Shown piece after piece: positions 2,816-55,089 of a DNA stretch of 64,000 nucleotides. The notes beneath the pieces are model-generated. The model saw only the letters and a list, made by a program, of their open reading frames with translations. It ran no database searches and was not told the origin of the DNA. The stretch is from Saturnia japonica (lineage: Eukaryota; Arthropoda; Insecta; Lepidoptera; Saturniidae), in NCBI GenBank assembly GCA_033032175.1, contig CM065307.1:2356001-2420000 (forward strand), written 5' to 3'. The number at the start of each line of letters is the position of its first letter. Within the stretch, counting starts at the first letter, position 1. Made by a program: the position numbers and the translations under genes.

Positions 2816-3348
2816 TACATTGTATAGTTGGTGTAAAGGATTTACTTATTATTTTCTTGTATGGTATTTTCGTCAATAATATAGTTTTAGAGTTAACCCA
2901 ATATGTGTGCAAAACTTTCCTTAGGCGAATTAAGTGCAATTAGCATTTATAATGTTAATTTACTACACTGTTAGTTAATATAACATTACTACATAATTTT
3001 CGAGATATGAAATAAAATCTAGTTTTGAATCTGGCAACGTTAGACACACGTTAAGTGCTAGAATAACTCTTGAACATCCACAGGCCTTGCAGGGTTGTCA
3101 ATTATTTTATAAATTTTATATTGTTTCACAGTGTCACTTTAAAATAATGGCGAGTGTAAATATTAATAATTTCTAGGAAATGTTCAAAAATTTATGAAGC
3201 TAACTGTAAAAAAAGAGTACGCTTATTTATCGACCATCACGAGTTATCAACCAAGATTGTATAGTACTTTAATTTTATCACAAATAAGGGCCAGCGCGCA
3301 CGTTAGAATGTGAAAAAATCACCCGTGCGCTCTAGCATTTACATTAAA

Positions 3349-24633: not shown

Positions 24634-24894
24634 TTTCTCAAACAAGCATGGAAATATTGTCATTATTTTCGAAAAAAGAACACGCGAAATATCGAATTTA
24701 CGGACAAAGAAAGTCAAATCCATTGCAGGAGCGTTTTTTGAATTTGGAACATTACAACGCTCCAGCAATGTTGTATGTTATTAAATACACTTTGACTGGA
24801 TCTCTTTTATCATTCTTTGCATGTCCGTAAATTCGATAATTCGCGTGTTCTTTTTTTGTAAATAATTACAATATTTTCATGCATGTTTGAGAAA
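24634..24894. mobile_element. 261-bp fold-back MITE
   Basis: The ends TTTCTCAAACA and TGTTTGAGAAA are inverted copies; the arms pair for about 75 bp (GAACACGCGAA, ATCGAATTTACGGACA on each side). A second inverted pair, CATTGCAGGAGCGTT against AACGCTCCAGCAATG, lies inside, so nearly the whole element is self-complementary. Two 60-88-codon frames on opposite strands are by-products of the palindrome. Confidence 0.85.
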
Positions 24895-25294: not shown

Positions 25295-28200
25295 CTGGAA
25301 TAAAGAAAACGTAAAATTATATTATGTACACAATGACTTCTATAAGCTAATTATAGCATGATGGTATGGTATTTTCTTATATTAAAAATCTGTTGGCATG
25401 TTCCAGCAGCTGCAATTTAAAGGCTGTTCTTCCTCTAGGCTTTGCATGTTAGGCATCTTGGGCAACATTAGGTGTTAAATGTGCGAATTGATAAAACCTA
25501 TAAAGAATTAAAAACCGACTGAATTATGACCAATAAGCACCACCTGAGGAGGAGTGAAATGTATAAAAGCGTTACGTTTTTTCTGCGCAACGTACCTGGC
25601 GCACCTTTCACTTTGAAATCATGTATGTGTATATAATATATATATACAAAAATGTTACAAAAACGGGGGAAATTTATTCCTTTTGAGAGTTTCCACTACC
25701 TGCGCTGCTTGAATGGTTAATGTTACGCAAAGATCGTGTATGATGAAATTATTTCTCTTAAAAAGTTCTAAAAAAAATCCGCGTTAGCATATGTCTAACT
25801 TTTACGGTTTACTAGATATAACCTTTGTTATGGTAATAAAATGGTTCTAAAATAATTAATTATTTGCGAAGGTCTTTTCATATTCATGGCATTAATGCAT
25901 ATCAAAATAAATAACAATATATTATGTATACATACATAATCTTACATTTAGATACAAGTCAGTCGGTCGAGTGGTCGGTCGTTAAATTCATATTCCAAAT
26001 GCATATTCAAAGAAAATCGTAACTTAAGCAGTAAACTCCAGTTGTGCGTAAGAGTTGACACACAAACTTTTTTTTTATACTAGCTTGACCGAAATTATTT
26101 ACTCCTCCATTCGGGAGCATTCCGACCTAGCCTACCAACACCTTGCTGTGTAGGAGGCGGAGGCAGCTTTCTCCCTGCCTGTACCTGGCTATGCTTATGC
26201 CATTCTGCTAACTAGATAGATGGATGTAGCTTGCTATAGTAGAACGAATTTTGACAATTCGATTCACAACTGTTGGTCTTCACTGTTTTTTTTTGGGAAA
26301 GATATATCCAATAGTCGTGGTGACGCTTTAAGTCCAGCTTAAAGCTATTCATAACAAAATTCCTCCCACAATAAGTTCTGAAGTTAGTCATTAAAGTTGA
26401 ATAGCTAGAATGCCAGTATGTATTGTTAAAACTCTTCATAAATCGGTTTGATGCAAGTGCTACAATAGTTGCACAACTTGTACAGTTTCCATAAATTTGT
26501 GCGATGTTTTTAATACAACTTAGGTAACAAGCAAGTCTACGATCTACATGATTGTAAGCAGCTACAGTAGCCTCTTCTAAGGAACTCTGTCTCACCACAG
26601 TAACATAAGGTAGATCTTCTGTAGGTTGTACTATTTGACCAGTTGGACTGCCCCAAGTAGAGAAAAATCTATAAAGAGATTTCTCTCTGCCCTTTATGGT
26701 ATTTAAATCCACATGATATTTACCGGAATGACAGCACTGTACTCCTTTCTCCTCTTGATAGGGGCATAAACCTTTAGTAGTGACGTGTTTGCCTGCGGGA
26801 CAGCCCTTGCCAACCGCGGTACATGTACCACCGAGCACAATACAAGGCAATTCGTTGAACGGAGATTTCACTTCTAAAAGTATATTCGATTATTGGTATG
26901 ATTTTATTATAAAAAATTAAATATAAATCTTTTTCAAAGGTTATAAAAACTTTTCAACAAAAAGGTCAGTGTTCGCCGTTTTAATTTTAAACACGAACTG
27001 AAGTCGGTGTAAGGTTGGAGTAGATAGAGATAGGATGCATCCAATAAATAATTAATATCTGGGCGACAGAGCTGTGCTCAGAGTCTTATAAACAAAAAAA
27101 GAAAAACACCTATCTAGATAAACTTGGAATGTAAAACATTATATAAATGCAAAGTTTCATCGATATCATTGGAGCCGTTCCCGAGAAAACAATTACATAA
27201 GCAATAATAATTAATTAAGTAAATAATTATATAAGCATTGCTTACTTAATATAATACGATTAATATGATTAATAGCTGTAAATATTTTTAGAGTAGTTAA
27301 TAATAAAAAGAAAAATAAACCCAAATTTCCCAGTCTGACGCAAGCGCAATACATCACGAGCATGTCAAGGTTATCGGTGACGCGAAGGTCACACGAACCC
27401 ATATGTTTTCGTAAAAATCGCTCAACGCGGCTAAAGAAGTTTTTACTTAAAAATCAGTGAACAAATTAAAATAAAAACGGTTTAACTCTAATTTATAGGT
27501 TACTAGCTGTCGTCATCGTTTTACCCGTGTTAAATCTATTCGAACAACTTTCCACCACGCCACCTCTAAGGACCCGTGTAGCCTAATGTTTTTTTTTTTA
27601 TGTTGTTTATAAAATTATTAAACACGATCTGAAGTCGGTGAAAGGTTGGGGTGGATAGAGATAGACATATACTAGGAAAAAGGATGGATGATGATGGATT
27701 GTCCATATGATTGACATAAGCGCATTTTAGCCTAAACACTACCTTTTTGGTACCTTTGGTCTCTCTCACTATGCATCCAATAAATAATTAATATCTGGGC
27801 GAATGAGCTATGTTCAGTGTCTTATAAACAAAAAAAGAAAAACACCTATCTAATGTAAAACATTATTTAAATGCAAAGTTTCATCGATATCGTTGGAGCC
27901 GTTCCCGAGAAAACAATGACATAAGCAATAATAATTAATTAAGTAAATAATAATATAAGCATTGCTTACTTAATATAATACGATTAATATGATTAATAGC
28001 TGTAAATATATTTAGAGTAGTTAATAATAAAAAGAAAAATAAACCCAAATTCCCAGTCTGACGCAAGCGCAATACATCACGAGCATGTCAAGGTCATCGG
28101 TGACGCGAAGGTCACACGAACCCATATGTTTTCGTAAAAATCGCTCAACGCGGCTAAAGAAGTTTTTACTTAAAAATCAGTGAACAAATTAAAATAAAAA

Positions 28201-29329
28201 CGGTTTATCTCTAATTTATAGGTTACTAGCTGTCGTCATCGTTTTACCCGTGTTAAATCTATTCGAACAACTTTCCACCACGCCACCTCTAAGGACCCGT
28301 GTAGCCTAATGTTTTTTTTTTATGTTGTTCTCACCAACCATACTTGCCCACATCTATCCGGACTGCGTAGCGTACGTACTTAATGCACAGCCATTTAGAG
28401 TCCTATCACCTTCTTCAAGAAATCTATACCTACTAATATTATAAAGCAGAAGAGTTTGTTTGTTTGGTTAGGCACGCTAATCTCAGGATTTACTGATTAC
28501 AAAGAAAAAATGGTTTTAGTTTTGGATAGCCCATTTATCGAGGGTGGCTATAAGCTATATAACATCAAGCTACGACTAATAGGAGCGGAGCATAAATGAA
28601 AAATGTTGCAAAAACGGGGGAAATTTATTCCTTTTAGTTTCCACTGCGTGCGCTGCTGGAATGGTTAATGTTACGCAACGATCGTGTGTGATAAAATTGT
28701 TTCTCTTAAAAAGTTCTAAAATAAATCCGCGATAGCATATGTCTAACTTTTGAGGTTTACACGATATAAACTTTTTTATGGTAATTAAATGCTCCTAAAA
28801 TAATGAATTATTCGCGAAGGTTTTTTTTATATTCATGGCATTAATGCCTATCAAAATAAATACATTAATCAGGACAATTATTTAGTTTTGAACAAAATTA
28901 CCCTGTATAGTAATTGATCTAAATGAATATCTTAAGAGATATCACGGTTTCAAAAAAACTCGGCAGCAAAATAATGATCATGTATCGCGAGCGCATGTTT
29001 ATTATGCAGAATAATGTGGGAGGTGGGCGGCACCTAATAATACAGTGCCTACGACCCATTCTCTCTCTCTTTCTCTCTTACATGATGCAAACGAAATTGC
29101 ACGGGTCGGCTAGTAGACTATAAAACACTAAATCATTTTTTTATTAAGTGCAGTGGTTCCAGAAATTACCCTCCACAAACAAACAAACTCACAGAATTAG
29201 TACAAATAATTTAAGTATAGATTCGAATATTAAAATATAATTAGAATACTCACGGCTGGGAATATTGCTTCCTTCAGTTTGACTAAAAATACACAAAAAA
29301 CACACTAACAATACTAAGCGGAAAATCAT
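25161..29329 (-). CDS. Secreted two-domain cysteine-rich protein (3 exons)
   Basis: Three exons, minus strand: 29329-29254, 26873-26724 and 25294-25161, 360 nt in total, predicting 119 residues and a TAA stop. Exon 1 encodes a hydrophobic signal peptide (MIFRLVLLVCFLCIF, then a small-residue cleavage region SQTEGS). Exons 2 and 3 each encode one six-cysteine unit with the same spacing: C-x6-C-x6-C-x11-C-x9-CC in exon 2 and C-x6-C-x6-C-x11-C-x5-CC in exon 3, each with GG just before the second cysteine. All junctions are phase 1: donor GTGAGT after 29254, acceptor TTTTAG before 26873, donor GTAAAT after 26724, acceptor TTCCAG before 25294. Exon-per-domain structure with matching phases suggests internal exon duplication. 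Role unknown; probably extracellular and disulfide-bonded. Cysteine spacing recalls small secreted arthropod proteins, including families named from centipede venoms, but I infer no toxicity. The start was chosen for its signal peptide; an in-frame upstream ATG at 29422 would place basic residues before it. Confidence 0.72.
25525..25925 (+). mobile_element. Helitron-like element, internal fragment H4
   Basis: Matches the middle of H1 (AAACGGGGGAAATTTATTCC, TTAAAAAGTTCTAAA, GCATATGTCTAACTTTT, TATTCATGGCATTAATGC). Both termini are missing. Lies in intron 2 of the cysteine-rich gene. Confidence 0.6.
26212..26873 (-). CDS. Exon 2 of the cysteine-rich gene with long read-through extension
   Basis: The acceptor TTTTAG ends at 26874. 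The spliced exon is 26873-26724 (domain 1). If the donor at 26723 is not used, the frame continues to a TAG at 26212-26214, adding 170 codons. This extension is rich in polar residues and carries eight cysteines in loose pairs (C-x3-C, C-x2-C, C-x3-C patterns), with no membrane segment. In DNA this AT-rich an open run of that length is unlikely by chance, so I read it as an alternative terminal exon giving a longer secreted isoform. I do not recognise the extension. A possible internal acceptor (CTCTTTATAG, near 26670) means it could instead be part of a separate exon. Confidence 0.6.
26989..28329. repeat. Direct tandem duplication, two units of about 0.63 and 0.71 kb
   Basis: Unit 1 is 26989-27619 and unit 2 is 27620-28329, in direct orientation. 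Both start AAACACGA(A/T)CTGAAGTCGG and end in CCTAATG, a T-run and TATGTTGTT. They are nearly identical over the shared part. Unit 2 carries about 100 extra bases (roughly 27667-27770) after GATAGAGATAG, and the T-runs differ in length. The units contain older repeat pieces (families K and M) found elsewhere in the window. The array lies in intron 1 of the cysteine-rich gene. Confidence 0.85.
28423..29113 (+). mobile_element. Helitron-like nonautonomous element, copy H1
   Basis: Starts TCTATACCTACTAATATTAT after an A and ends GGTCGGCTAG before a T, meeting the Helitron rule 5'-A|TC...CTAG|T-3' with no target duplication or inverted repeats. Contains a GGATAGCCCATTTATCGAGG block shared with H2 and H3. 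Lies in intron 1 of the cysteine-rich gene. The 66-codon frame at 28923-29123 is inside it and is not a gene. Confidence 0.7.
29254..29329 (-). CDS. Exon 1 of the cysteine-rich protein gene: signal peptide
   Basis: 76 coding nt from ATG (29329-29327) to a strong 5' splice site, GTGAGTAT, starting at 29253. It encodes 25 residues plus one base of the next codon. Eleven of the first fifteen residues are hydrophobic, typical of a signal peptide. The frame stays open past the donor for a while, but that extension is intron. Confidence 0.7.
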
Positions 29330-44799: not shown

Positions 44800-45042
44800 A
44801 TAATATAAAGTTAATGTACGTTTTTTTCTAACGTTTATATAAAATCCTTTCATTTGACATTGTATGGAATTACTGCTGTTAAATATACAAAGAAACAATG
44901 ATGAATATTTCCCTGCAAGTTCCGCTTTTTGCTGCCAATATGCAATATTATATTATAATAGCAGCAAACATACTTGACGGTGAAGTGTTTAATTTCCTCT
45001 ACATGTATTGTTTTCATACATGTGCTGAAGTATAAAATAATA

Positions 45043-45655
45043 TCTATACTAATAATATAAAGTTGAAGAGTTTGTTTGGTTGTCTCAGGAACTACTGGTT
45101 CGAATGGAAAAAATGTTTTGGTGTTGGATAGCCCATTTATCAAAGAGGCCTTAAAATATTACGCTACGACCAATAGGAGCGGATAATTTATTCCTTTTGA
45201 GAGCTTCCACTGAGTGCGTTGTGTGATTGATTAAAGTTACACTGCAATTTGTATGACGAATTTGTTACTTTTAAAAAGTTCTAAAAAAAGTCCGCGACAG
45301 CATATGGCTTTAAAGGTTTACTCAATATAACCTTTTTATGGTTTTTTTTTTTTTAATAATGCATTTTTGCGAAAATGTATTTATAAACTTTATATTAATC
45401 CTTACCGAAATAAGTACGTTAATTTTTAGAAGTATTTAATTTTGAACAGAATTGCCATTCACATCATTTAATTTCAATGTATATCTTGGGAGATATCACA
45501 GTTTTAAAATAACACCGCGGTAAAATAATGACCAAGTACCGCGCGCGCATTTTTATTATGCGGAATTTTGTGGGACGTGGGTGGCACCTATAATACAGTG
45601 TCTACGACCCACTGTCTGTAATTCTTTCGCAGACGAAGTTGCGCGTTTCAGTTAG
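45043..45655 (+). mobile_element. Helitron-like nonautonomous element, copy H3
   Basis: TCTATACTAATAATATAAAG at the 5' end after A. The 3' end reads TTAGT where H1 and H2 have CTAGT, so the terminal motif is mutated. Same internal blocks (GGATAGCCCATTTATC, ACGCTACGACCAATAGGAGC). Confidence 0.65.
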
Positions 45656-45759
45656 TAGTTTACATATCTTCAAACTACATTAAGCAGCATAATAAATAAT
45701 CCAGAATACTGTAGGCAAATAAGGTTGCGTTGACGGTGGTAGAGTGATGCTCGAATTTC

Positions 45760-46075
45760 TTTGGTAATTACTTTACTATGGAAGATCCTAGCGAAATAAC
45801 CTTGTATTCTTGCGGGGAGTAGATTTCGAGAGCTTCCAGAGAACCTACGACAGAGATTAGCGTCTACTACTGTGGCAATATCAAGCCGACCGTAGTGCAG
45901 AAAAGACGTATAGTGGTGAGGTGTTGTTGATTTGATATAGATCTAGACAATACAAGGGGTAAAGTTCGGCAACGCTAGATCTGTTAGAGAGTCATATCTC
46001 TGGTATTATAAGTGGCCATAGGCTATTGTAACTGCTTAGCTTGCCATCAGGAAGGCTGTTTATGTTTGTTTGTTA
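45760..46075. repeat. Third copy of the CTACGGTAACCG repeat
   Basis: GGAAGATCCTAGCGAAATAA, CCTTGTATTCTTGCGGGGAG, GTGGCCATAGGCTATTGTAA and GCCATCAGGAAGGCTGTTTA in family order. Confidence 0.5.
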
Positions 46076-46489
46076 CTTTAGAAACTATGAAAAAAATACG
46101 AAGTTAAAAAACACGATCATCAAAGAAAAGTCTTTCTTTGTAACATGGAAACTCGTGATATATTGTGTGTAAAGAACAGAAACTATAACTAACTATAACT
46201 ATAACTAAAAAAATCAGAAGCTGGCAATAAAACTTAATACGTTGAATAACTTCCAATCGCGATATTCAAATTACACAATTTCGGTTTTGCAACAGAGCCA
46301 AGTGGCTTGTAAAATGCATAAAATGACATGATCATCAGAGCTTACAATAATTACGTGTAATATATGGCAAATAAATTTGAGTAGGTGCAGGAACTAAACT
46401 ATATATTGTATTTATTTATTTAAAGTAAAATACAGCGGATAAGATCAATCAGATATTTTTGTTAAATTGTTGTCGGCATTTGTTTTTTT

Positions 46490-46700
46490 ATCGACTTCAA
46501 CAAAAGACGGGAGGTTACTCAATTCCAATGTACATATTTTTTTAATGGATGTTCAGCCGTGGCGTTTATGTTAATGTTTATGAACCGATTTGGATGAATC
46601 TCAAGGTTGGTCCCGTTTTAATTTCATCGGCATTGGACCTTCAACTTCATAGATACACCAAAATTGTCTTGATCTCTGACAAGTTTTTTTAATAATTACT
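46490..46700 (+). repeat. Family D repeat
   Basis: ATCGACTTCAACAAAAGACG, GATGTTCAGCCGTGGCGTTT, GGACCTTCAACTTCATAGAT; diverged copy. Confidence 0.6.
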
Positions 46701-47164
46701 TGTTTGCTTTAGATATTTTGCGAAACAGACGCAAAACTATAACAAGACGGCGTACCGAACGCTGAGATGTGACATCAGCGAATATGCATGGAAAAGAGAT
46801 AGATTCATTGTGAAATCTCTGAGCTAGAACTACAACGGTTTCGCTACTATGGATTCACTGCGATGGTATGCTAAAGGTCTTATAAATCTTGCAGCGAAAT
46901 AATTACACCGCAATGCAATGTGTACTGTAATTATTATTGAACTAGACCATCCTCTACAATATCTACATTTGGTTTACATAAACGGTTATGTTTCGATAGA
47001 TTGCATGTTTGTACAACATTATCATATTGTGGCAGAGATACCCGAGGGTATTGTGTTTCGCTCAATATTACGGGGTGTGGAAATTGTGTCAAAATTTTTT
47101 AAAGTTATCCTTCTTTAGGTGCGTTTTTTAAAATATCTCCAAGTACATTATGAAGTTACTGTAT

Positions 47165-47460
47165 AAAACTTTTTAACACCGTTGTGATTTGAAACTCGAT
47201 GAAACGAAAAAGCGACACTAAAAACAGACAAACACATACATCTATAAGATTCATGCTAGAGAATGAAATAGAATACATTATACAGTGTTTTCTATTATTT
47301 CGGTTTCCTCTTTGTAAGTGTGTTTGCCTGCGTATTACGAAACCTTGTTAAAGGTGTCATAGGTGGTGTATTATTCACGTGTGACGTTTATGTTAATGTT
47401 TTTTATATTTTCTGATGGTTTCACTTCTACCCCGTGTGAACTGCACACATGCTACTAAAA
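47165..47460 (+). repeat. Family E repeat
   Basis: GTTGTGATTTGAAACTCGAT, GAAACGAAAAAGCGACACTA and GGTTTCACTTCTACCCCGTG in family order; internal deletion relative to 30282-30735. Confidence 0.65.
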
Positions 47461-47654
47461 GTACTATGTATCACTATTTAAAGAAGTTTTACATCAAATT
47501 TTTTTGACGTTATAGGCACTCCTTCTGGCACGTTTGATAGATGATAAAGTTGATGGCTGAAGCTGATGATGCGAAAAAATTGTGTTATGATGAAGTTAGC
47601 CATAAATGATTATAATGTGAATTTATTTTATTGTTTTTATTCTGTTCTATAAAA

Positions 47655-47949
47655 ATAAAATATAACATCGCCTCGTAGAGCGTGTTCTATCATCTGTGTC
47701 ATGGTGAGTATTATAAAGAGCCGTTCAATTTAATACCCTCCTCTCCCTTTCACAACATAACCACACGCGCTGGGCGTCGGAGTCACAGTTTGATGGTAAC
47801 CTCCACCTCGGCACAATAGTTCTCTATGACTTATCTTTGTCGTACCGTGAAGCTGTGGAACCTTTTCCCAGTCAGTGTGTTCCCTCCTTCTTACGACATC
47901 GGGTCCTTTAAGCGTAACATGAAGAGATATTTATTCAGGACGGTATGAC
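47655..47949 (+). pseudogene. LINE X C-terminal fragment
   Basis: Plus strand reads SVFYHLCHGEYYKEPFNLIP and then RTVKLWNLFPVSVFPPSYDI, GSFKRNMKRYLFRTV and stop. It matches the 36.5-kb copy closely, including the stop position after the basic tail. Confidence 0.7.
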
Positions 47950-48184
47950 AGGCAGCGGCTGATGTATTTAGATCTTTCAGTGGTCTCCATTGTGTTTGAA
48001 TTGCGCTGTGCTTACCTGATGGTAACCTCAGATGGGTCAGTACCGTCAATATGTCGAGCTATTATTTAAAAAGATTTAACAAACATAAGACTTAAGTGGC
48101 ATTGGATGTGGTATGTAGCTCGTAAAGTTGATGACCAATAGAGCCAAAGAGTTCTCGAGTGTTGACCACGTATTGGAAGACGCA

Positions 48185-48196
48185 TCGTGGGCAGAC
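48185..48196. repeat. Target-site duplication, 3' side of the half-LINE
   Basis: TCGTGGGCAGAC, identical to 50805-50816. Joining the flanks at this repeat restores a continuous RTE reading frame, confirming that it is a duplicated target. Confidence 0.9.
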
Positions 48197-48301
48197 ATTT
48201 TTTTTTTTTTTTTAACGTGTGCCGCGTCTCCCCGGCGGCTGGCCCCAGTCGGGTCCCGGCACTAAAGAGAGATAGTCTGGTACAACCCCAACTGTCAGAC
48301 G

Positions 48302-48357
48302 GCTGAACCAGTGCAATGGAAAGACGGGCCCCCCGTCCCGTCTCCCCTTGGTTCAGC
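48302..48357 (-). promoter_or_regulatory. Two-part hairpin in the 3' UTR of the half-LINE
   Basis: Outer stem GCTGAACCA (48302-48310) pairs with TGGTTCAGC (48349-48357); inner stem AGACGGG (48322-48328) pairs with CCCGTCT (48337-48343). The structure lies between the gag stop and the poly(A) tail. A hairpin here could be the RNA feature recognised by a partner reverse transcriptase, but that is inference. Confidence 0.5.
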
Positions 48358-48395
48358 AAGGGTGAAGGAAGGAGGGGAAATCGCCCCCCTCCCTT

Positions 48396-50490
48396 CTACC
48401 CAACGTCTACGCTATCCTCTGAGCTTGGCAGAGGTAGTTGCGGCGCCATTCCCTTAGTGGGTGGCGGCTTACAGGCAGCTCCAGTCATCTGGTGATTCGC
48501 CGGCCTCCCGGCGTCGGCACACAAGGCGCAGTGGAGCTTTTTTGACTGCACACTCCAGCGCCTTGTGGCCAGGCTGCCCGCACTGGAAACACAGGGCTCC
48601 GCGGTCTATCGTCGACGGGCAGAGCGGGCGCGTGTGTCCCACACCCATGCACTTGAAACAGCGCATGGGCCCACTCTCCAAAAGGCGCACACGCGGTGAA
48701 TTCCACCCGACCAACAGACGGCCTGCCTCAACCAGCACCCTGGCAGCAGCGGCTGGGAGCGATAAGTGCACCGCTCCCATGCCCCAGCCATATGTGCGTA
48801 TATCACCAGCCCTGATAAGGGCTGGCTCACAGCCTCCTTTCTTGGCTGCAGCTACCACCACATCATGGGCCGACACCGAGTCGTCCAAGCCGACCACACG
48901 AACATTCGCCTTTTTAATAGGCCTAGCAACGGTAGCCTCCCCCGCCAGCACATCCTGTAATATTTTGACGATCTGGTCCGCTTGCTCAGAGCCACGCGAG
49001 CCACGGTCGCTGTTGCCCTAATCAAAATGTTCTCGACTCCGAGATCCGCCAGCACGACTTGATCCTGAGCCTTTAGAAGAGCCGCCTTATAGCTTAGCCC
49101 CCCCCGCCAAGGCCTCTGGCTGCAGCGTAATAAGCACTGCAGCTGAGCGCGGTGTCGAGGGAAGCTTCGCCTGCCGCACTGCCGCATCAGTCCTCGATAT
49201 CGCAGAGGGCTTCTTCCTTCTACGTCGACGACGAGTCACCGTTGTCCACTCTGAAGCAGCCGTCGTTGGTAAGCTCGGTGCACGTGCAGCGGCCTCGCCC
49301 AAGGTGCAGTCCATCTCCAGGGGCTTCCGGGGACGGTCAGCTGCCGTCGGACTCTTCACACGGAGTGCATGGGTAGTATCCGCTGATTTGGGTACTGCAG
49401 ATTTAGCAGCAGCGGTGGCTTTTGAAAACCCATCAGCAGCCAGAGGGGGCGAATCACTGGGGCAGGGAGGAGACGGTCCTCCAGGGCCTCAATTTGGCTG
49501 GTCACTACCTCCCCCATTGTAACCCGGAGAGATTGTTCCATCCTCCCCATGTGCTCCCCCAACGCATCCACCAACATCTGTTGCAGAGAACCCTGACCCT
49601 GGACGATCTCCGGCAGCACTTGTGACAACGGCAGCACAGGAGGAACCTCTGCCCGACTGCGCAACGCGGAGAGCTCCGCCTTGAGACCGTCGACCTCCTG
49701 ACGAAGCCTCCTCGTCTCGCGCCGGAGAAGGAGGGTCTCCTATGCCACCGTGCGTACTAGAGCCGTTGTGGTAACCTCTTGGAGGGTCCAAGCTGCCTCC
49801 TTTAATTTTTTAACATACGTGCCCTTGAGGTGGCCAGATTTTTTGGCCACGTCGATGATCGCATCGACTTTCTCTTTGGCCAGAGCCCTCAACCTTTCTG
49901 GATCGAGGAACTTTATACCATCGAATACTGCAATATCTGCAAGGCCATCAGCCTCATCCGCAACGTCACCAGGCTCATCTGCCACTTTGCCACAATCGTC
50001 GGAGCCCGAAGACTCGGGAAGCGGACAGTCCTGTGGCGCCCAACCAGGAACTGAGGCACGCGTCAATCCCGCAGCGGAGCCCGGGTCATGGGCTTTACCT
50101 CTTCGTGCCGTAGTGACTTTGCATGGAGGAGGGGAATACGTATCTCCTGCACTGGTCTCGTCTAAAAATATGGTCCTCTTCCTGCACTGAACACCAGCCA
50201 ACGTTATAAAGCTAGTGGAGTGCTCGGCCCAATGCTTGACCGCAAATTGGTCAAGCTCCAAATTCCTATCCAGGACCACACTGGGTAAATCAGTTGCCGT
50301 ATTCGTCGCCAAAGTCGTCGTTTTGGTAAGATCATCCGTCCGTTTGCTCGCCAAGTTTGTTGCGGTTACTTGCCTATCGCGCAAAATTCTGCCAAAGAAG
50401 ACGTGGGGCTGCCCGGGCTAAGCCCGGAGAGGGATTCTCCTTTTGGGTACCCTCTTGGGGTAGTTTATTTTTAAATTTTGCTCTGTCCAT
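48396..50490 (-). pseudogene. Gag-like ORF1 of the R1-clade element, frameshifted
   Basis: Likely start ATG at 50490 (MDRAKFKNKLPQEG). The reading is carried by several frames: 50384-49740, then past a TAG at 49740-49742 in the same frame to about 49465, then 49465-49100, 49100-49000, 49000-48540, and the last frame to TAG at 48396. Frame changes fall near 50390, 49465, a C-run at 49098-49105, near 49000, and an A-run (T-run on plus) near 48540. Recognisable parts are a basic-leucine coiled coil just after the TAG (RRETRRLRQEVDGLKAEL), a basic cluster RRRRRRKK near 49215, a domain ending VGLDDSVSAHDVVVAA, and knuckles CFKCMGVGHTRPLC, CFQCGQPGHKALEC and a third of form CALC-x7-H-x5-C just past the last frameshift. 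The protein would bind element RNA in a ribonucleoprotein. This copy cannot make it intact. Confidence 0.8.
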
Positions 50491-50804
50491 ACTCTCGTTT
50501 CTCTCCCATCAGTTTGCGGTACGCCTGCCGGGATCGGTATGAAAACAACCAATCCCGCCAGCCGCTGCCCGGAACTGGGCCCTTGGGCTCAAACTGAGCC
50601 CTCATCGGCCCCAGCCCGGTACTGGGTGCGCGGTCGCACATACCACACCCAGGAGCTTTTAAAGGCCCTCCAGCCGGCACTCCTCCATAGTCCCCTGTGA
50701 TAAGCAGAGGGATACCAGGAGGAGCGCGTCAGAAATTAGCCGCCGACCAAACTGGTCGACGTTGCCCGGGGTACACCGCGAGGAGGTTTCTGACATCGTA
50801 CCCC

Positions 50805-50816
50805 TCGTGGGCAGAC
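50805..50816. repeat. Target-site duplication, 5' side of the half-LINE
   Basis: Second copy of TCGTGGGCAGAC, abutting the element's 5' end. Confidence 0.9.
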
Positions 50817-51714
50817 CTGCCGCAAGGTGAACCGACGTCGTGGCAAAGGTTGCGGTAAGCCGTTGGATGCGGGCAGCATAGGGCCGGTCATTGTGGCGAT
50901 CTTTGGGGGAGGCCTATATCCATGAAGGAACGTCTTTCAGTTGAAATAATGATAAATAATGTATAGTTCAATTTGTTAAATCAGATTTATTAACAACTAA
51001 TAAAAATGATTACAAATACTTATCTAAACTATAATGGTATTTCATTTCATTTCAGTTTTTTTTTTAAATATTTTTTAAATTAATTATTAGTCGATCTGTT
51101 AACATTAAAATCGTAAGCCAAAAATAATTGAAAAATATTATTTTTAGATTATTTAATTACATCTAGTATACATTTTTTTTCGTACCGTGTTATAGTGAAA
51201 TAGTAGTACATGCTATCATCTGTCATCGGAACTGGGCGAGTGTGTGTAATTTACTCAGTATTTTTATTTTCTTATAACAAACACGAAACGTTACAATAGT
51301 CGGTTGTTGATCAATTTACGTATATAAAACTACATTATTAACATTAACAGTGACATTACTCATTTTTGGGGAGGATGGAGAGGATAAGTTAGATGGAAAG
51401 AAAAACGAATGAAGAGGTCCTGAACATAGTGAAAGAGAGGTGGATATTACTGGAGATTATTTAAAATAGGAGGAGAAATTTTCTGGAGCATTTAATTTGG
51501 TATGACGACTTAATAAAAACGATAATACAAGGAAACATTGATGGAAAAATTAAGGAAGACCAAGAAGGACATACATTCAGCAGGAGAAGTAAAAAATAGG
51601 CGTCGTGTCGTATCACGATGTCAAGAGAAAGGCACAGTGTAGGGAGAGCTGGAGATTGCACCACCGACAAGAGCATCATCGCTCTTAAATTTTAAGATGA
51701 CCTCAAAAAGAAAA

Positions 51715-52060
51715 AGGAATCCTTATAGGATCACTTCGTTTTCCGGCTGTACATCTGTCTGTCGGTCAAGACCCTTTTTCTTAGGAGTGCGTGGAGGTTA
51801 AGTTGAAGTTAATATCAAATACTCAAGTCTGCAATCCTTTAAAACTGTGATAAAACCATACTTCTAAGTCAACGCAATCAAAAGATACGGTTGAAGCAAT
51901 GTCTTATGCCACAAGTAAAGAAAAAACCTCGAAATCGGTAAATTTGTAAGTACATCACACATTTGTGATTACCAACTTATTTGCAGTTGGTATACTGACC
52001 GCGGCATATATCAATGAATGGGAAAACGAGGGTCGAAGTTACTCGGATGGTCTTGAAATT
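51715..52060. repeat. Family F repeat, second copy
   Basis: CTTATAGGATCACTTCGTTT, CTGTCTGTCGGTCAAGACCC, GATTACCAACTTATTTGCAG, CATATATCAATGAATGGGAA. Confidence 0.6.
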
Positions 52061-52243
52061 TACGAAATCGTTTAAAACAAAGGAAAATTCGTTATTTTTA
52101 GACATTGTTTTATTGATAACGTAATTTTACCGATAAGCTCTGTGTATACTGCTTATGCCTTTGTGTACCTACAAATATATACTCGATATTTCTAGCTGAT
52201 TGTTGACAAGTTTTACTCAGGTCGTATGGATTAAATAAAAATT

Positions 52244-52575
52244 ATGTGTGCAATTCACACGTGGTAGAAGTGAAACCTTCACATCTATTTTTTTTTTTTT
52301 TTAGAAAATAATCAAATACACAGTAATTTAAAGTTTATGAAAATGTACATACAAACATTATTCACAATATCATTTTCAATGAATGCACATTTGAAATATT
52401 CATGGTAACTTAACACAATATCAATCTGTAACAGAATGTCATAAGTGTTGTCTAAAAAGTGTTTGTTTCGTTCCTTTTTGGCGAGGTAATAAAATCTCTT
52501 TTTACGTCGTTTTCACTTTTCGTTTCATCAACTTTCAAATCACAACGTTACTAAAGAAGTTTTCACTTCAAAATT
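52244..52575 (-). repeat. Family E repeat, inverted
   Basis: CAATTCACACGTGGTAGAAG, GAATGTCATAAGTGTTGTCT and CAACTTTCAAATCACAACGT are the reverse complement of the other two copies. Confidence 0.65.
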
Positions 52576-53085
52576 ACATCCTTTATTCAATACTTCAATC
52601 AATTTAATATAGAAATTTCGCGTACTCCGAAGTATGGGAATAACGGCCAGATGTTATCATTTGTCATTCATTTGGGGCGGTCTGCGGTTACTGACGTCAT
52701 TTGTTTTTCGTAACTGAAAACCGCGCGGCACGCCTATGTGCCATTCCACCGGTTTCTTTTTTATTTATAGCTACTTAATTTATATATTATTCTATAATTT
52801 AGAAGCAATGATAGTTTAGTCGATAGCATGTACAGGCTTCTTGCAATCAGCATGAGCTTTCGCTGAAGGAATACATCGTGATGAAATCATAGCATGGTGG
52901 TAAAGCTTTTGTGGCGTGTAAATTAATAAACAATTAAATTGAAATTAAAATACATATTCATTACAAAAAATTATAGCATAATAAAATAAATACCTATAAA
53001 AATAATTATATGTTAAAATTAGTTATTATTATTAATTATTATTGAAACACAAATTTATCAAATAATTATTAGAACTAGCGGTCAC

Positions 53086-53436
53086 CCAGTGATCGAAATT
53101 CGGCCAGCGACTTTTTAATCATAGACTATTTTCTGTTTGACTTTTGCAGTATGAACCTAAACAATGAATATTACATATATCACTTGCTGTCACTTTTCAT
53201 CGAGTGACCATGTCAATATTTTGGAGGGTCTCAGTTCAATGGCACTGTTCGGGTTAGGATTCGCAGTATTAATTAATTTAATTTAATATATTAGTAACAG
53301 ATATTATACATAAATTTTTGCTTTCTGCACTCCTTCTCCATATAAACTTTAACCATGCCAAATCACAGTCTTCCGTGCACGCAATACGCTTGAAAAGGGG
53401 TAGAAAGCTTTTGCTTCACGTATTAATATATAGATA
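53086..53436 (+). repeat. Family A interspersed repeat
   Basis: CTAGCGGTCACCCAGTGATC to TTCACGTATTAATATATAGA; colinear with 36966-37330. Confidence 0.75.
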
Positions 53437-53439
53437 AGA

Positions 53440-53690
53440 AATTTTATATTATTATGAATTATATAAAAGTATAATTTAAAAGTCATTAATTTTGTAATAT
53501 AACATTTTATTAAATCATTTAAATGCTTTCTAAATAAATTTAAGTTTAATTCATTATAGGTGTTTGGTATTTTATAATAGATTTTAGGTGCTATACAAAA
53601 AATACTTTTCCACATAAGAGTAGTCCTAGAGATGCGAATACACAACTGAGAATTAACAAAATTATCTAAAGACCTGAAAAGCTAAATAGC
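53440..53690 (-). pseudogene. LINE reverse-transcriptase C-terminal tail
   Basis: Minus-strand frame (98 codons from 53645) gives MCIRISRTTLMWKSIFCIAP, KIYYKIPNTYNELNLNLF and RKHLNDLI, the typical post-RT tail of insect non-LTR elements. It directly abuts the end of a family A repeat at about 53436. No upstream RT is visible. Confidence 0.55.
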
Positions 53691-55089
53691 ATATGTTCTA
53701 TGTCCCCTCGAAGCGAAGAATTAGATACGGTATGCTGAATATGAAAGAGAATACAAGAAACGACAAGCAGACTGTGACGAGGGAACAACAGACTGTGAAC
53801 AGTGAACTTATCCTCATTTTGTCTTCATGTGAAAATCAGTTCCTTTAAACTCTATATACGAGCCTAACAATAAAGGAATAATAACTAATATGCTTTACAA
53901 ATTCATAAATTCCAAACTGTCAGTCAGTTTAACTCAATTTAAATAGGTCCGCAGTTAGTGTAATACAGTTATTTATCAAGTTACCTAAGTTACCAAGTCA
54001 ACTGCATCGGAAACTTCGATACTATCTCCGAAGTTATACTTAAGAACTATACAGATTCATATTGCGTCGCGCATTTTTACCTATATTTTTTAATCTGATT
54101 TTAGTGTTACAATTTATACAAATTGAATTGTTTAGTTAGCATGACGAATTTTTAATCACTTAACCACTTAAAGTTTAAAACTGATATCCTTATAATTTAA
54201 TTTTAGCTGATGAACACGTTAAACTTGGAAAGAGAATCGATTCAAGAGCAACCATCGGAATACACTAATCGATGCTTGAGCTCAGATTTTCAAACGGAAG
54301 ACATAAGTTAGCCAGTTTAAATACTTGTTATTACAACGAAAGAGTTTTTCACATACTAAAAGACTTTAATTTATAAACCTTTACAAACTTCACACTACAT
54401 GTCACTACTTTTCATTGACAATAGTTATAGGTATATACATTATTTGTTTATTAAACTGCAATACTGTAGGTCTTTAATTAACTACATGACATTTAATATT
54501 ACATTATATAGTATACTTACATTTTCATCACAATATAATGTTTTCTTTATATTTAGAACGAAATTCAAAGTTTTTTTAAATTCAATTCAAGGCAATTCGA
54601 CAAAACCACACACATACATTACATAAAATATATTTTATGAAAAAAAAATTGCTTTGTGTTTTATCAGCAGTTATATAATATTGTAATTATGACATGAGTG
54701 GTAAATTAGAGTTTTGTATGTTACAAAATGTCTTTAGAACATAAGGAAGCTTCGAGAAGCGACAACTATTTCTAAGCGAGCGTCGCCGCGCCGCGCCGTC
54801 TCAAAACGCCCTCAACTCTCGGAGTGTTAATAGTAACACCAGTTAGTAGTTATCATCTTGGCTTTAGAAACGCTCCTATCATAGTTCAAAGCTGTTTAAA
54901 TTTAATTATGAGAATATTATTATAATGGAAACAGATCAAATCAAATAGATAATATATATATATATAACTAAAGACAGTAAATATTTCAATAAAAGGGAAA
55001 TACACAATATATGCGTATTTCTTCCTAGTAATATTCAATTTGTTAATTACTTTCATATATCTTATTATATTAAGTGAGCAATTCTTGTG

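What the first reader, a model, noticed from the sequence alone, without database searches (positions are those of the whole stretch)
48197..50804. R1-clade retrotransposon that carries gag only: an insect half-LINE
The copy has complete-looking ends (5' leader, poly(A), 12-bp target duplication), a full-length gag-like ORF1 with three zinc knuckles, and then goes straight to a 3' UTR. There is no trace of endonuclease or reverse transcriptase. Known parallels are mammalian HAL1 elements and Drosophila HeT-A, which encode ORF1/gag only and depend on another element's enzyme. If it is a family rather than one deleted copy, it would be a gag-only parasite of R1-type LINEs in this genome.
Basis: partly seen in the sequence, partly recalled or inferred. 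Interest (0 to 1): 0.78.

Follow-up and report, generated by a model that had tools for sequence, protein, structure and literature searches.

The report
Gag-only telomere retrotransposon family in moth/butterfly
This copy is a dead member of a large family of mobile elements that carry only one structural gene, insert into telomere repeats, and probably borrow the copying enzyme of a complete relative, an arrangement best known from fruit-fly telomeres.

Summary
The observation largely holds and the family test is positive. The window copy (minus strand, 48198-50804) has a 5' end, a decayed gag, a 3' UTR, poly(A), a 12-13 bp duplication and no ORF2. In its own genome (580 Mb) the gag-to-3'UTR junction occurs 1137 times (control 1) and the gag-only 3' UTR 1252 times. 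Complete copies (about 2.77 kb) have one ORF, open in several (about 700 codons), differing 11-15 bp duplications, and dN/dS 0.21-0.36 between diverged subfamilies. They insert at A|GG and form head-to-tail arrays separated by (GGTTA)n, the insect telomere repeat; contig C1 starts with one. An autonomous R1-like family (autB, 654 3' UTRs, gag plus ORF2) shares the last 95 nt (95% identical) and the target. A third family (autA) keeps the same 3' RNA fold through compensatory changes. HDV-like ribozymes stand at the 5' ends. Best reading: an autB-like ancestor lost ORF2, probably once, and the gag-only lineage has since spread in trans, much as HeT-A relates to TAHRE/TART. Mobilisation by autB is inferred. 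The window copy itself is dead.

The parts
48198..50804 (-). Gag-only non-LTR retrotransposon copy (older subfamily, inactive)
   Evidence: 92% identical, nearly full-length relative at C25:5.40 Mb; 37 further matches cover the gag end and 3' UTR at 82-87%
50729..50804 (-). HDV-like self-cleaving ribozyme at the exact 5' end
   Evidence: RF02682 41.7 bits, E 1.2e-6 (under gathering 44); above gathering in L031, L032 and L043
48396..50490 (-). gag (ORF1) pseudogene; TAG at 49740-49742 plus frameshifts; homologous to open 700-715-codon gags of other copies
48469..48951 (-). gag C-terminal part with zinc knuckles (third knuckle in another frame)
   Evidence: PF00098 zf-CCHC E 5.4e-6
48392..48412 (-). 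Junction GCGTAGACGTTGGGTAGAAGG joining gag to the 3' UTR, shared by the family
   Evidence: motif in 22 of 24 elements; 1137 in the genome; this copy listed as C4:2404392-2404412
48214..48395 (-). 3' UTR, lacking about 127 nt of the terminal structured region found in complete copies
48198..48213 (-). poly(A) tail, 16 A
48185..48196 (.). target duplication, 3' copy (12 bp)
50805..50817 (.). target duplication, 5' copy; site reads CA|GGTCTGCCCACGA

Best explanation
The window holds a decayed copy of a gag-only retrotransposon lineage derived, probably once, by internal deletion (from the gag end to about 45 nt before the ORF2 stop) from an autB-like autonomous element. Inferred cycle: read-through or own-promoter RNA is trimmed at its 5' end by the HDV-like ribozyme; the RNA is translated into Gag; the 3'-terminal four-helix RNA structure is recognised in trans by the ORF2 protein of autB (possibly also autA); that protein nicks the TTAGG strand before AGG and primes reverse transcription on the poly(A), giving 11-15 bp duplications and head-to-tail telomeric arrays with poly(A) toward the chromosome tip. 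Shown by sequence: anatomy, copy number, target, duplications, selection on gag, shared 3' end, covariation. Inferred: ribozyme activity, trans mobilisation, function of Gag.
For: Junction 1137 copies, gag-only 3' UTR 1252, autB 654, autA (one 3' UTR type) 278, reversed controls 0 or 1. Open gag frames of 700-715 codons; dN/dS 0.21-0.36 between subfamilies with dS 0.7-1.9. Exact, mutually different duplications of 11-15 bp in 9 copies; A|GG at the 5' edge in all 11 copies in which the script found a duplication; GG after poly(A) in 42 of 44 junctions. Last 95 nt of the 3' UTR 95% identical to autB, against 72% and 66% further in. 14 of 26 pairs with compensatory change, covariation 0.474 v 0.220 shuffled, 0 of 500. 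Shared junction with an ORF2-end-like stretch. Gag tree puts gag-only beside autB. Arrays at the start of C1, at C1:8-15 kb and C1:228-236 kb. SART1Bm proteins mobilise a 3' UTR in trans (PMC7265360, passages).
Against: No expression, protein or retrotransposition data. Gag-only gags as one clade have moderate support (84/82; 74/88, where autB falls into the same unresolved fork), so more than one origin is not excluded by the tree. Of 20 sampled copies one is 5'-truncated and one is joined to an ORF2 fragment. Two of 44 3' junctions lack GG, and the window copy's own 3' flank reads TG. In the covariation count one measure, further pair types, is lower than in shuffles (19 v 21.9), and the changes fall between few sequence groups, so they are few events. 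dN/dS within a subfamily is weaker (0.40-0.58; one young pair 1.04). A TERT domain is present, so telomere upkeep need not depend on these elements.
Confidence: 0.85

Rival explanations
1. Single deleted copy, or a family multiplied only by segmental duplication: one ORF2-less copy spread by recombination in telomeric arrays, not by retrotransposition.
For: Tandem arrays with regular 2.8 kb spacing; apparent duplicated segments, e.g. C1:126 kb and C1:151 kb about 25 kb apart.
Against: Copies inside chromosome-sized contigs with exact, mutually different duplications and different flanks: C13, C23, C6 19.5 Mb, C9 15.4 Mb, C3, C7 7.2 Mb. Poly(A) lengths vary from 16 to 63.
Confidence: 0.03
2. 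Several independent ORF2 losses from different autonomous elements, each short-lived, with selection on gag reflecting autonomous ancestors.
For: Moderate support for gag-only monophyly (84/82, 74/88); internal deletions recur in LINEs (R2 SIDEs, PMC3414825, passages).
Against: The same junction motif in 22 of 24 elements across subfamilies and 1137 in the genome; no autonomous gag seen inside the clade, though only 7 autonomous gags of this genome were put in the tree.
Confidence: 0.1
3. The main helper is autA (the more distant SART-like family), not autB.
For: autA stands next to gag-only copies in the same orientation, one autA copy has an 86-89% identical 5' UTR, and the 3' fold is shared with covariation.
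Against: Its 3' UTR is only 60% identical in the last 95 nt and 32% upstream, against 95% and 66-72% for autB; autA gag is 32-41% identical, autB gag 40-47% by tblastn.
Confidence: 0.12

Closest known systems
Drosophila HeT-A (with TAHRE and TART)
   Same: Gag-only, no RT, telomeric tandem arrays with autonomous relatives; HeT-A related to the two-ORF TAHRE, with TART said to supply the machinery (PMC4700185, passages).
   Different: Different lineage (HeT-A is of the jockey clade; recalled). Here insertion is into (TTAGG)n and similar sites with duplications, poly(A) toward the tip, a 5' ribozyme, and a TERT domain in the host. HeT-A attaches to chromosome ends (recalled).
SART1Bm and SART elements of Bombyx
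   Different: The family described here lacks ORF2.
Mammalian HAL1 (half-LINE)
   Same: ORF1-only derivative of a LINE, persisting as a family (recalled; not examined).
   Different: L1 clade, no telomere target, different ORF1 (recalled).
R2 SIDEs and R2/R1 hybrid SIDEs in Drosophila
   Same: Internal deletion derivatives that keep the 5' ribozyme and 3' recognition end of an rDNA LINE (PMC3414825, passages).
   Different: SIDEs are short and keep the ends; here gag is kept and under purifying selection.

Membership tests
R1-clade / SART-like non-LTR elements | ORF1 with three zinc knuckles | tested here: met
   (by eye; Pfam finds at most one zf-CCHC); in the window copy only across frames
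R1-clade / SART-like non-LTR elements | ORF2 with AP-like endonuclease and RT | tested here: not met
   absent in the gag-only copies examined; present in autB and autA
R1-clade / SART-like non-LTR elements | Insertion at T|A of the TTAGG strand | tested here: met
   A|GG in 11 of 11 copies with a duplication found by script (in C25, C6 3.5 Mb and C1 the A belongs to a preceding poly(A)) and in L002 and C9 13.0 Mb by eye; GG in 42 of 44 3' flanks, GGTTAGG in 15 of 44. The A may belong to target or tail
R1-clade / SART-like non-LTR elements | RT groups with the R1 clade in an RT tree | not tested
   Only similarity: the 120 listed of 347 ORF2 hits (46-64% identity) include a protein named R1DM-like and lepidopteran and ant RTs
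HeT-A | Gag-only, no RT | tested here: met
HeT-A | Telomeric head-to-tail arrays beside autonomous elements | tested here: met
   many listed copies are interstitial
HeT-A | Jockey-clade descent and attachment to chromosome ends without target duplication (recalled) | tested here: not met
   Target duplications 11-15 bp, poly(A) toward the tip at C1; relatives by similarity are R1/SART-like
HAL1 | Derived from L1 | tested here: not met
   Nearest relatives by similarity are R1/SART-like
HDV-like ribozyme LINE 5' ends | Ribozyme fold starting at nucleotide 1 | tested here: met
   above gathering in 3 loci, below it in the window, in one autB copy (L088, 35.6) and one autA copy (L053, 40.9); cleavage itself not testable
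Stringent 3'-end recognition | Conserved 3' structure shared with the helper | tested here: met
   binding not tested

The most novel reading that the evidence does not exclude
A telomere consortium like the Drosophila HeT-A/TAHRE/TART set has arisen separately in Lepidoptera within SART/R1-like elements: gag-only elements, the most numerous of the three counted families, supply a telomere-directed Gag in trans, while autB (and autA) supply ORF2. The gag-only lineage would then be a partner, not just a parasite, and would help to lengthen telomeres alongside TERT.
Probability: 0.3. Interest if true: 0.88.

Novelty: new variant of a known kind. Interest (0 to 1): 0.76.

Why it matters
HeT-A is the textbook case of a gag-only telomere retrotransposon, known from flies that lost telomerase. 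Finding the same division of labour in another lineage, with TTAGG repeats and a TERT domain present, makes testable whether gag-only partners evolve because telomere targeting needs much Gag or because they are parasites that escape purging. The 95%-identical terminal 95 nt and the covarying fold give a defined RNA for trans-recognition tests.

Tried and rejected
Rejected: a lone deletion (different duplications, 1137 junctions); ORF2 present in the other copies (0 of 20 sampled); descent from the autA SART-like elements in the arrays (gag elsewhere in the tree, 3' UTR 32-60% identical). My first helper candidate was autA, found with a Choristoneura RT; the gag tree then pointed to an Ostrinia-like lineage, and the Ostrinia ORF2 found autB.

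Led nowhere: viral-contig scan with P0002; Rfam gathering scan of the window (0 matches; the ribozyme lies just under the cut-off). Gag homologues of other species do not show whether gag-only copies exist elsewhere: P0002 and P0003 lie on 2.3 kb contigs, too short to tell. Two patterns on 3' ends did not complete. The host species was not identified; 'Lepidoptera' is inferred from relatives, TTAGG repeats and contig sizes.

Rows dropped: frameshifted C25a, C179, C6b, C1b and L041 were left out of dN/dS and trees; C23, C6a and C9a are in dN/dS only; C9a, L052 and the autA gags there are partial frames. Of the 16 fetched sample loci 6 entered the trees (L060 has a stop; the others were broken, short or not chosen). 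One search left out the 7 places on C7, where the list of 100 was cut off.

Literature: the rows listed (titles and abstract starts; long result lists were cut, e.g. 12 of 689) show no gag-only TTAGG-targeted family. The library lacks most subscription papers and Repbase was not searched, so prior description cannot be excluded.

Mended after a recheck: the missing 3' UTR stretch is about 127 nt, not 150; the microRNA-like matches lie in ORF2 of autB, not gag; the ORF2 test of the sample was repeated with all ORF2 hits shown and with autB ORF2, same result; the covariation count was repeated on exact rows, same result.

Full report
1. The copy in the window. The element lies on the minus strand. 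Its first base is 50804 and its poly(A) (16) is at 48198-48213. The target duplication is 12 bp exact, or 13 bp with one mismatch, and the site reads CA|GGTCTGCCCACGA. The gag homology runs from about 50490 to 48396. It is broken by a TAG at 49740-49742 and by frameshifts. Two zinc knuckles stand in one frame and the third in another. Pfam recognises one zf-CCHC (E 5.4e-6). After the gag end comes a short 3' UTR. ORF2 of either autonomous family finds nothing in window 45001-54000. Compared with complete copies the 3' UTR lacks about 127 nt, the structured terminal part. This copy is therefore dead on two counts.

2. It belongs to a family. The genome holding the window (G000, 580 Mb, 402 contigs) gave 116 matches from 40 scored of 3216 candidates. 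One copy at C25:5.40 Mb is 92% identical over nearly the full length. 37 further matches cover the gag end and 3' UTR at 82-87%. Nine copies were completed from neighbouring stretches. All nine run from gag to 3' UTR without ORF2 between, and the eight with a poly(A) are 2727-2771 bp. The gag frame is open in C13, C23, C6 (19.5 Mb) and C9 (15.4 Mb). C9 (13.0 Mb) has an open frame that starts late, and four are frameshifted. L043 and two copies in L045 are open too.

3. Counts. A gag-only 3' UTR 31-mer (up to 3 mismatches) occurs 1252 times, reversed control 0. The gag-to-3'UTR junction (up to 2 mismatches) occurs 1137 times, control 1. A stricter gag-end 32-mer occurs 49 times. Of the 100 places listed for the 31-mer I took every fifth (20; 16 fetched, 4 already held in L045, L010, L052 and L007). 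In 18 a gag C-terminus stands before the 3' UTR. One is 5'-truncated (L067). One has the gag knuckles joined to an autA ORF2 N-terminal fragment (L056). In none does an ORF2 C-terminus precede this 3' UTR. The listed places are those without mismatch on C1-C7, so the sample favours young copies.

4. Target and arrays. Nine copies have exact duplications of 11-15 bp that differ from one another (C13, C23, C6 19.5 Mb, C25, C179, C6 3.5 Mb, C9 15.4 Mb, L041, L043). The C1 copy at 4.46 Mb lies in a telomeric tract, and the window copy has one mismatch. For L002 the script found none (two mismatches by eye), and C9 13.0 Mb has no poly(A) to compare. A|GG stands at the 5' edge in the 11 found by script, and in the other two by eye. 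After poly(A), 42 of 44 distinct junctions start with GG and 15 of 44 with GGTTAGG. C1 begins with a head-to-tail array of gag-only elements of different subfamilies, separated by GGTTAGGTTAGGTT. Of 93 listed places on C1-C6, 16 lie within 100 kb of a contig end, 21 times the expectation. These are the first listed places, not a random sample, and most are interstitial. [quoted passage not shown]

5. Selection. Between gag-only subfamilies (51-67% amino-acid identity) dS is 0.7-1.9 and dN/dS 0.21-0.36 (Nei-Gojobori). Within a subfamily, and against the mosaic C9 15.4 Mb copy, it is 0.40-0.58; one very young pair (C23, C6 19.5 Mb; dS 0.004) gives 1.04. Gag has been kept as a protein over a long time, with the usual weakening among recent copies.

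6. The autonomous partner. With the Ostrinia gag-ORF2 protein P0114 as bait, one search found a family here named autB: 81 matches scored of 13711 candidates, many (not counted) in one open frame of 1051-1062 codons. Two complete copies (L087, L088) have gag frames of 685 and 703 codons and ORF2 frames of 1054 and 1051 codons; the ORF2 of L088 has endonuclease and RT domains. L088 has a 14-bp duplication at CA|GG, read by eye. autB has 654 3' UTR copies. Its last 95 nt are 95% identical to gag-only copies (7 autB, 5 gag-only rows), as close as gag-only copies are to each other (96%), while the next two blocks are 72% and 66%. autB and gag-only elements stand in one orientation in one array at C1:8-15 kb.

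7. A third family. autA is a more distant SART-like family in the same arrays (278 copies of one 3' UTR type). One autA copy (L053) has a 5' UTR 86-89% identical to gag-only elements, although the gags are only 32-41% identical. This suggests exchange of 5' ends; another autA copy (L077) is at 69-73%. Twelve 3' ends (5 gag-only, 6 taken as autA, 1 unassigned) fit one four-helix structure predicted from them. 14 of 26 pairs show changes on both sides; 96.8% of cells pair against 26-55% when slid; covariation is 0.474 against 0.220 in shuffles, reached by 0 of 500; the number of further pair types is lower than in shuffles (first done). The shuffles do not allow for relatedness, and the structure was predicted from the same rows. 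With three autB rows added, 25 pairs are predicted, 12 with changes on both sides. L071 and L075 carry no ORF2 in the piece fetched and were placed by 3' UTR likeness.

8. Origin. The junction motif GCGTAGACGNTGGGY occurs in 22 of 24 gag-only elements examined (not in L060 and the truncated L067). By eye it is followed, most clearly in L045, L052, L055 and L062, by a stretch like the last codons of autB ORF2. The simplest account is one deletion from near the gag end to about 45 nt before the ORF2 stop. The gag tree puts 12 gag-only gags together (84/82; P0002 of unnamed source falls with them), beside autB (99/96), apart from 5 autA gags. With four more homologues the support is 74/88 and autB stands in the same open fork.

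9. Ribozyme and host. HDV-like ribozymes start at nucleotide 1 in the window copy and in gag-only copies, one autB and one autA copy; three gag-only loci pass the gathering score, the rest lie below it. A TERT RNA-binding domain is present with an open frame (47.7 bits).

10. How it works (inferred). The ribozyme frees the 5' end, Gag is made, the autB ORF2 protein binds the shared 3' structure, cuts before AGG and copies the RNA. This works like HeT-A with TAHRE/TART (PMC4700185, passages), but it is not HeT-A: lineage, orientation and duplications differ.

Noticed in passing
C1:43066/59452, C1:343800/360191, C1:4435426/4451813, C28:11072061/11088445, C59:5954/22342: Several pairs of matches are spaced 16384-16391 bp apart on different contigs; probably an assembly artefact, which would inflate some array counts.
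   Followed up: no
L053:9620-9686 and 3274-3340 (-), L087:1863-1931 (+), L088:1834-1902 (+): Rfam mir-3389 matches (73.5 bits and less, gathering 75), all antisense inside ORF2 of autA and autB: this microRNA family may derive from R1-like elements.
   Followed up: no
3' flanks of L002, L065, L067: Several insertions lie at AGG inside one dispersed repeat (GGTTTAGCCACAGTCTGTGAAGCCTGGCCG-like).
   Followed up: no
C13 copy (L013/L031) and C179 copy (L005/L036): These gag-only copies are flanked by ORF2 of R1-like elements: the C13 copy's 3' flank is autB-like (87% of 40 aa), and the C179 copy sits in an antisense ORF2.
   Followed up: partly
window 50805-50945 and 48100-48196: The window copy sits in another repeat whose end (GGGGGAGGCCTATATCCATGAAGGAACGTC) resembles a common lepidopteran LINE end (recalled).
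   Followed up: no
L056 (C1:4451013-4452143): Gag-only knuckles joined to an autA ORF2 N-terminal fragment (95% identical): a chimera or array rearrangement.
   Followed up: partly
L006/L039 (C9:15.35 Mb): Mosaic gag: the 5' half differs in subfamily from the 3' half, which is nearly identical to C13, suggesting template switching or recombination.
   Followed up: partly
window 27035-28321 and 24634-24894: A tandem duplication with 723-736 bp spacing (94-97%) and an 80-bp inverted repeat (89%) with 101 bp between the arms.
   Followed up: no
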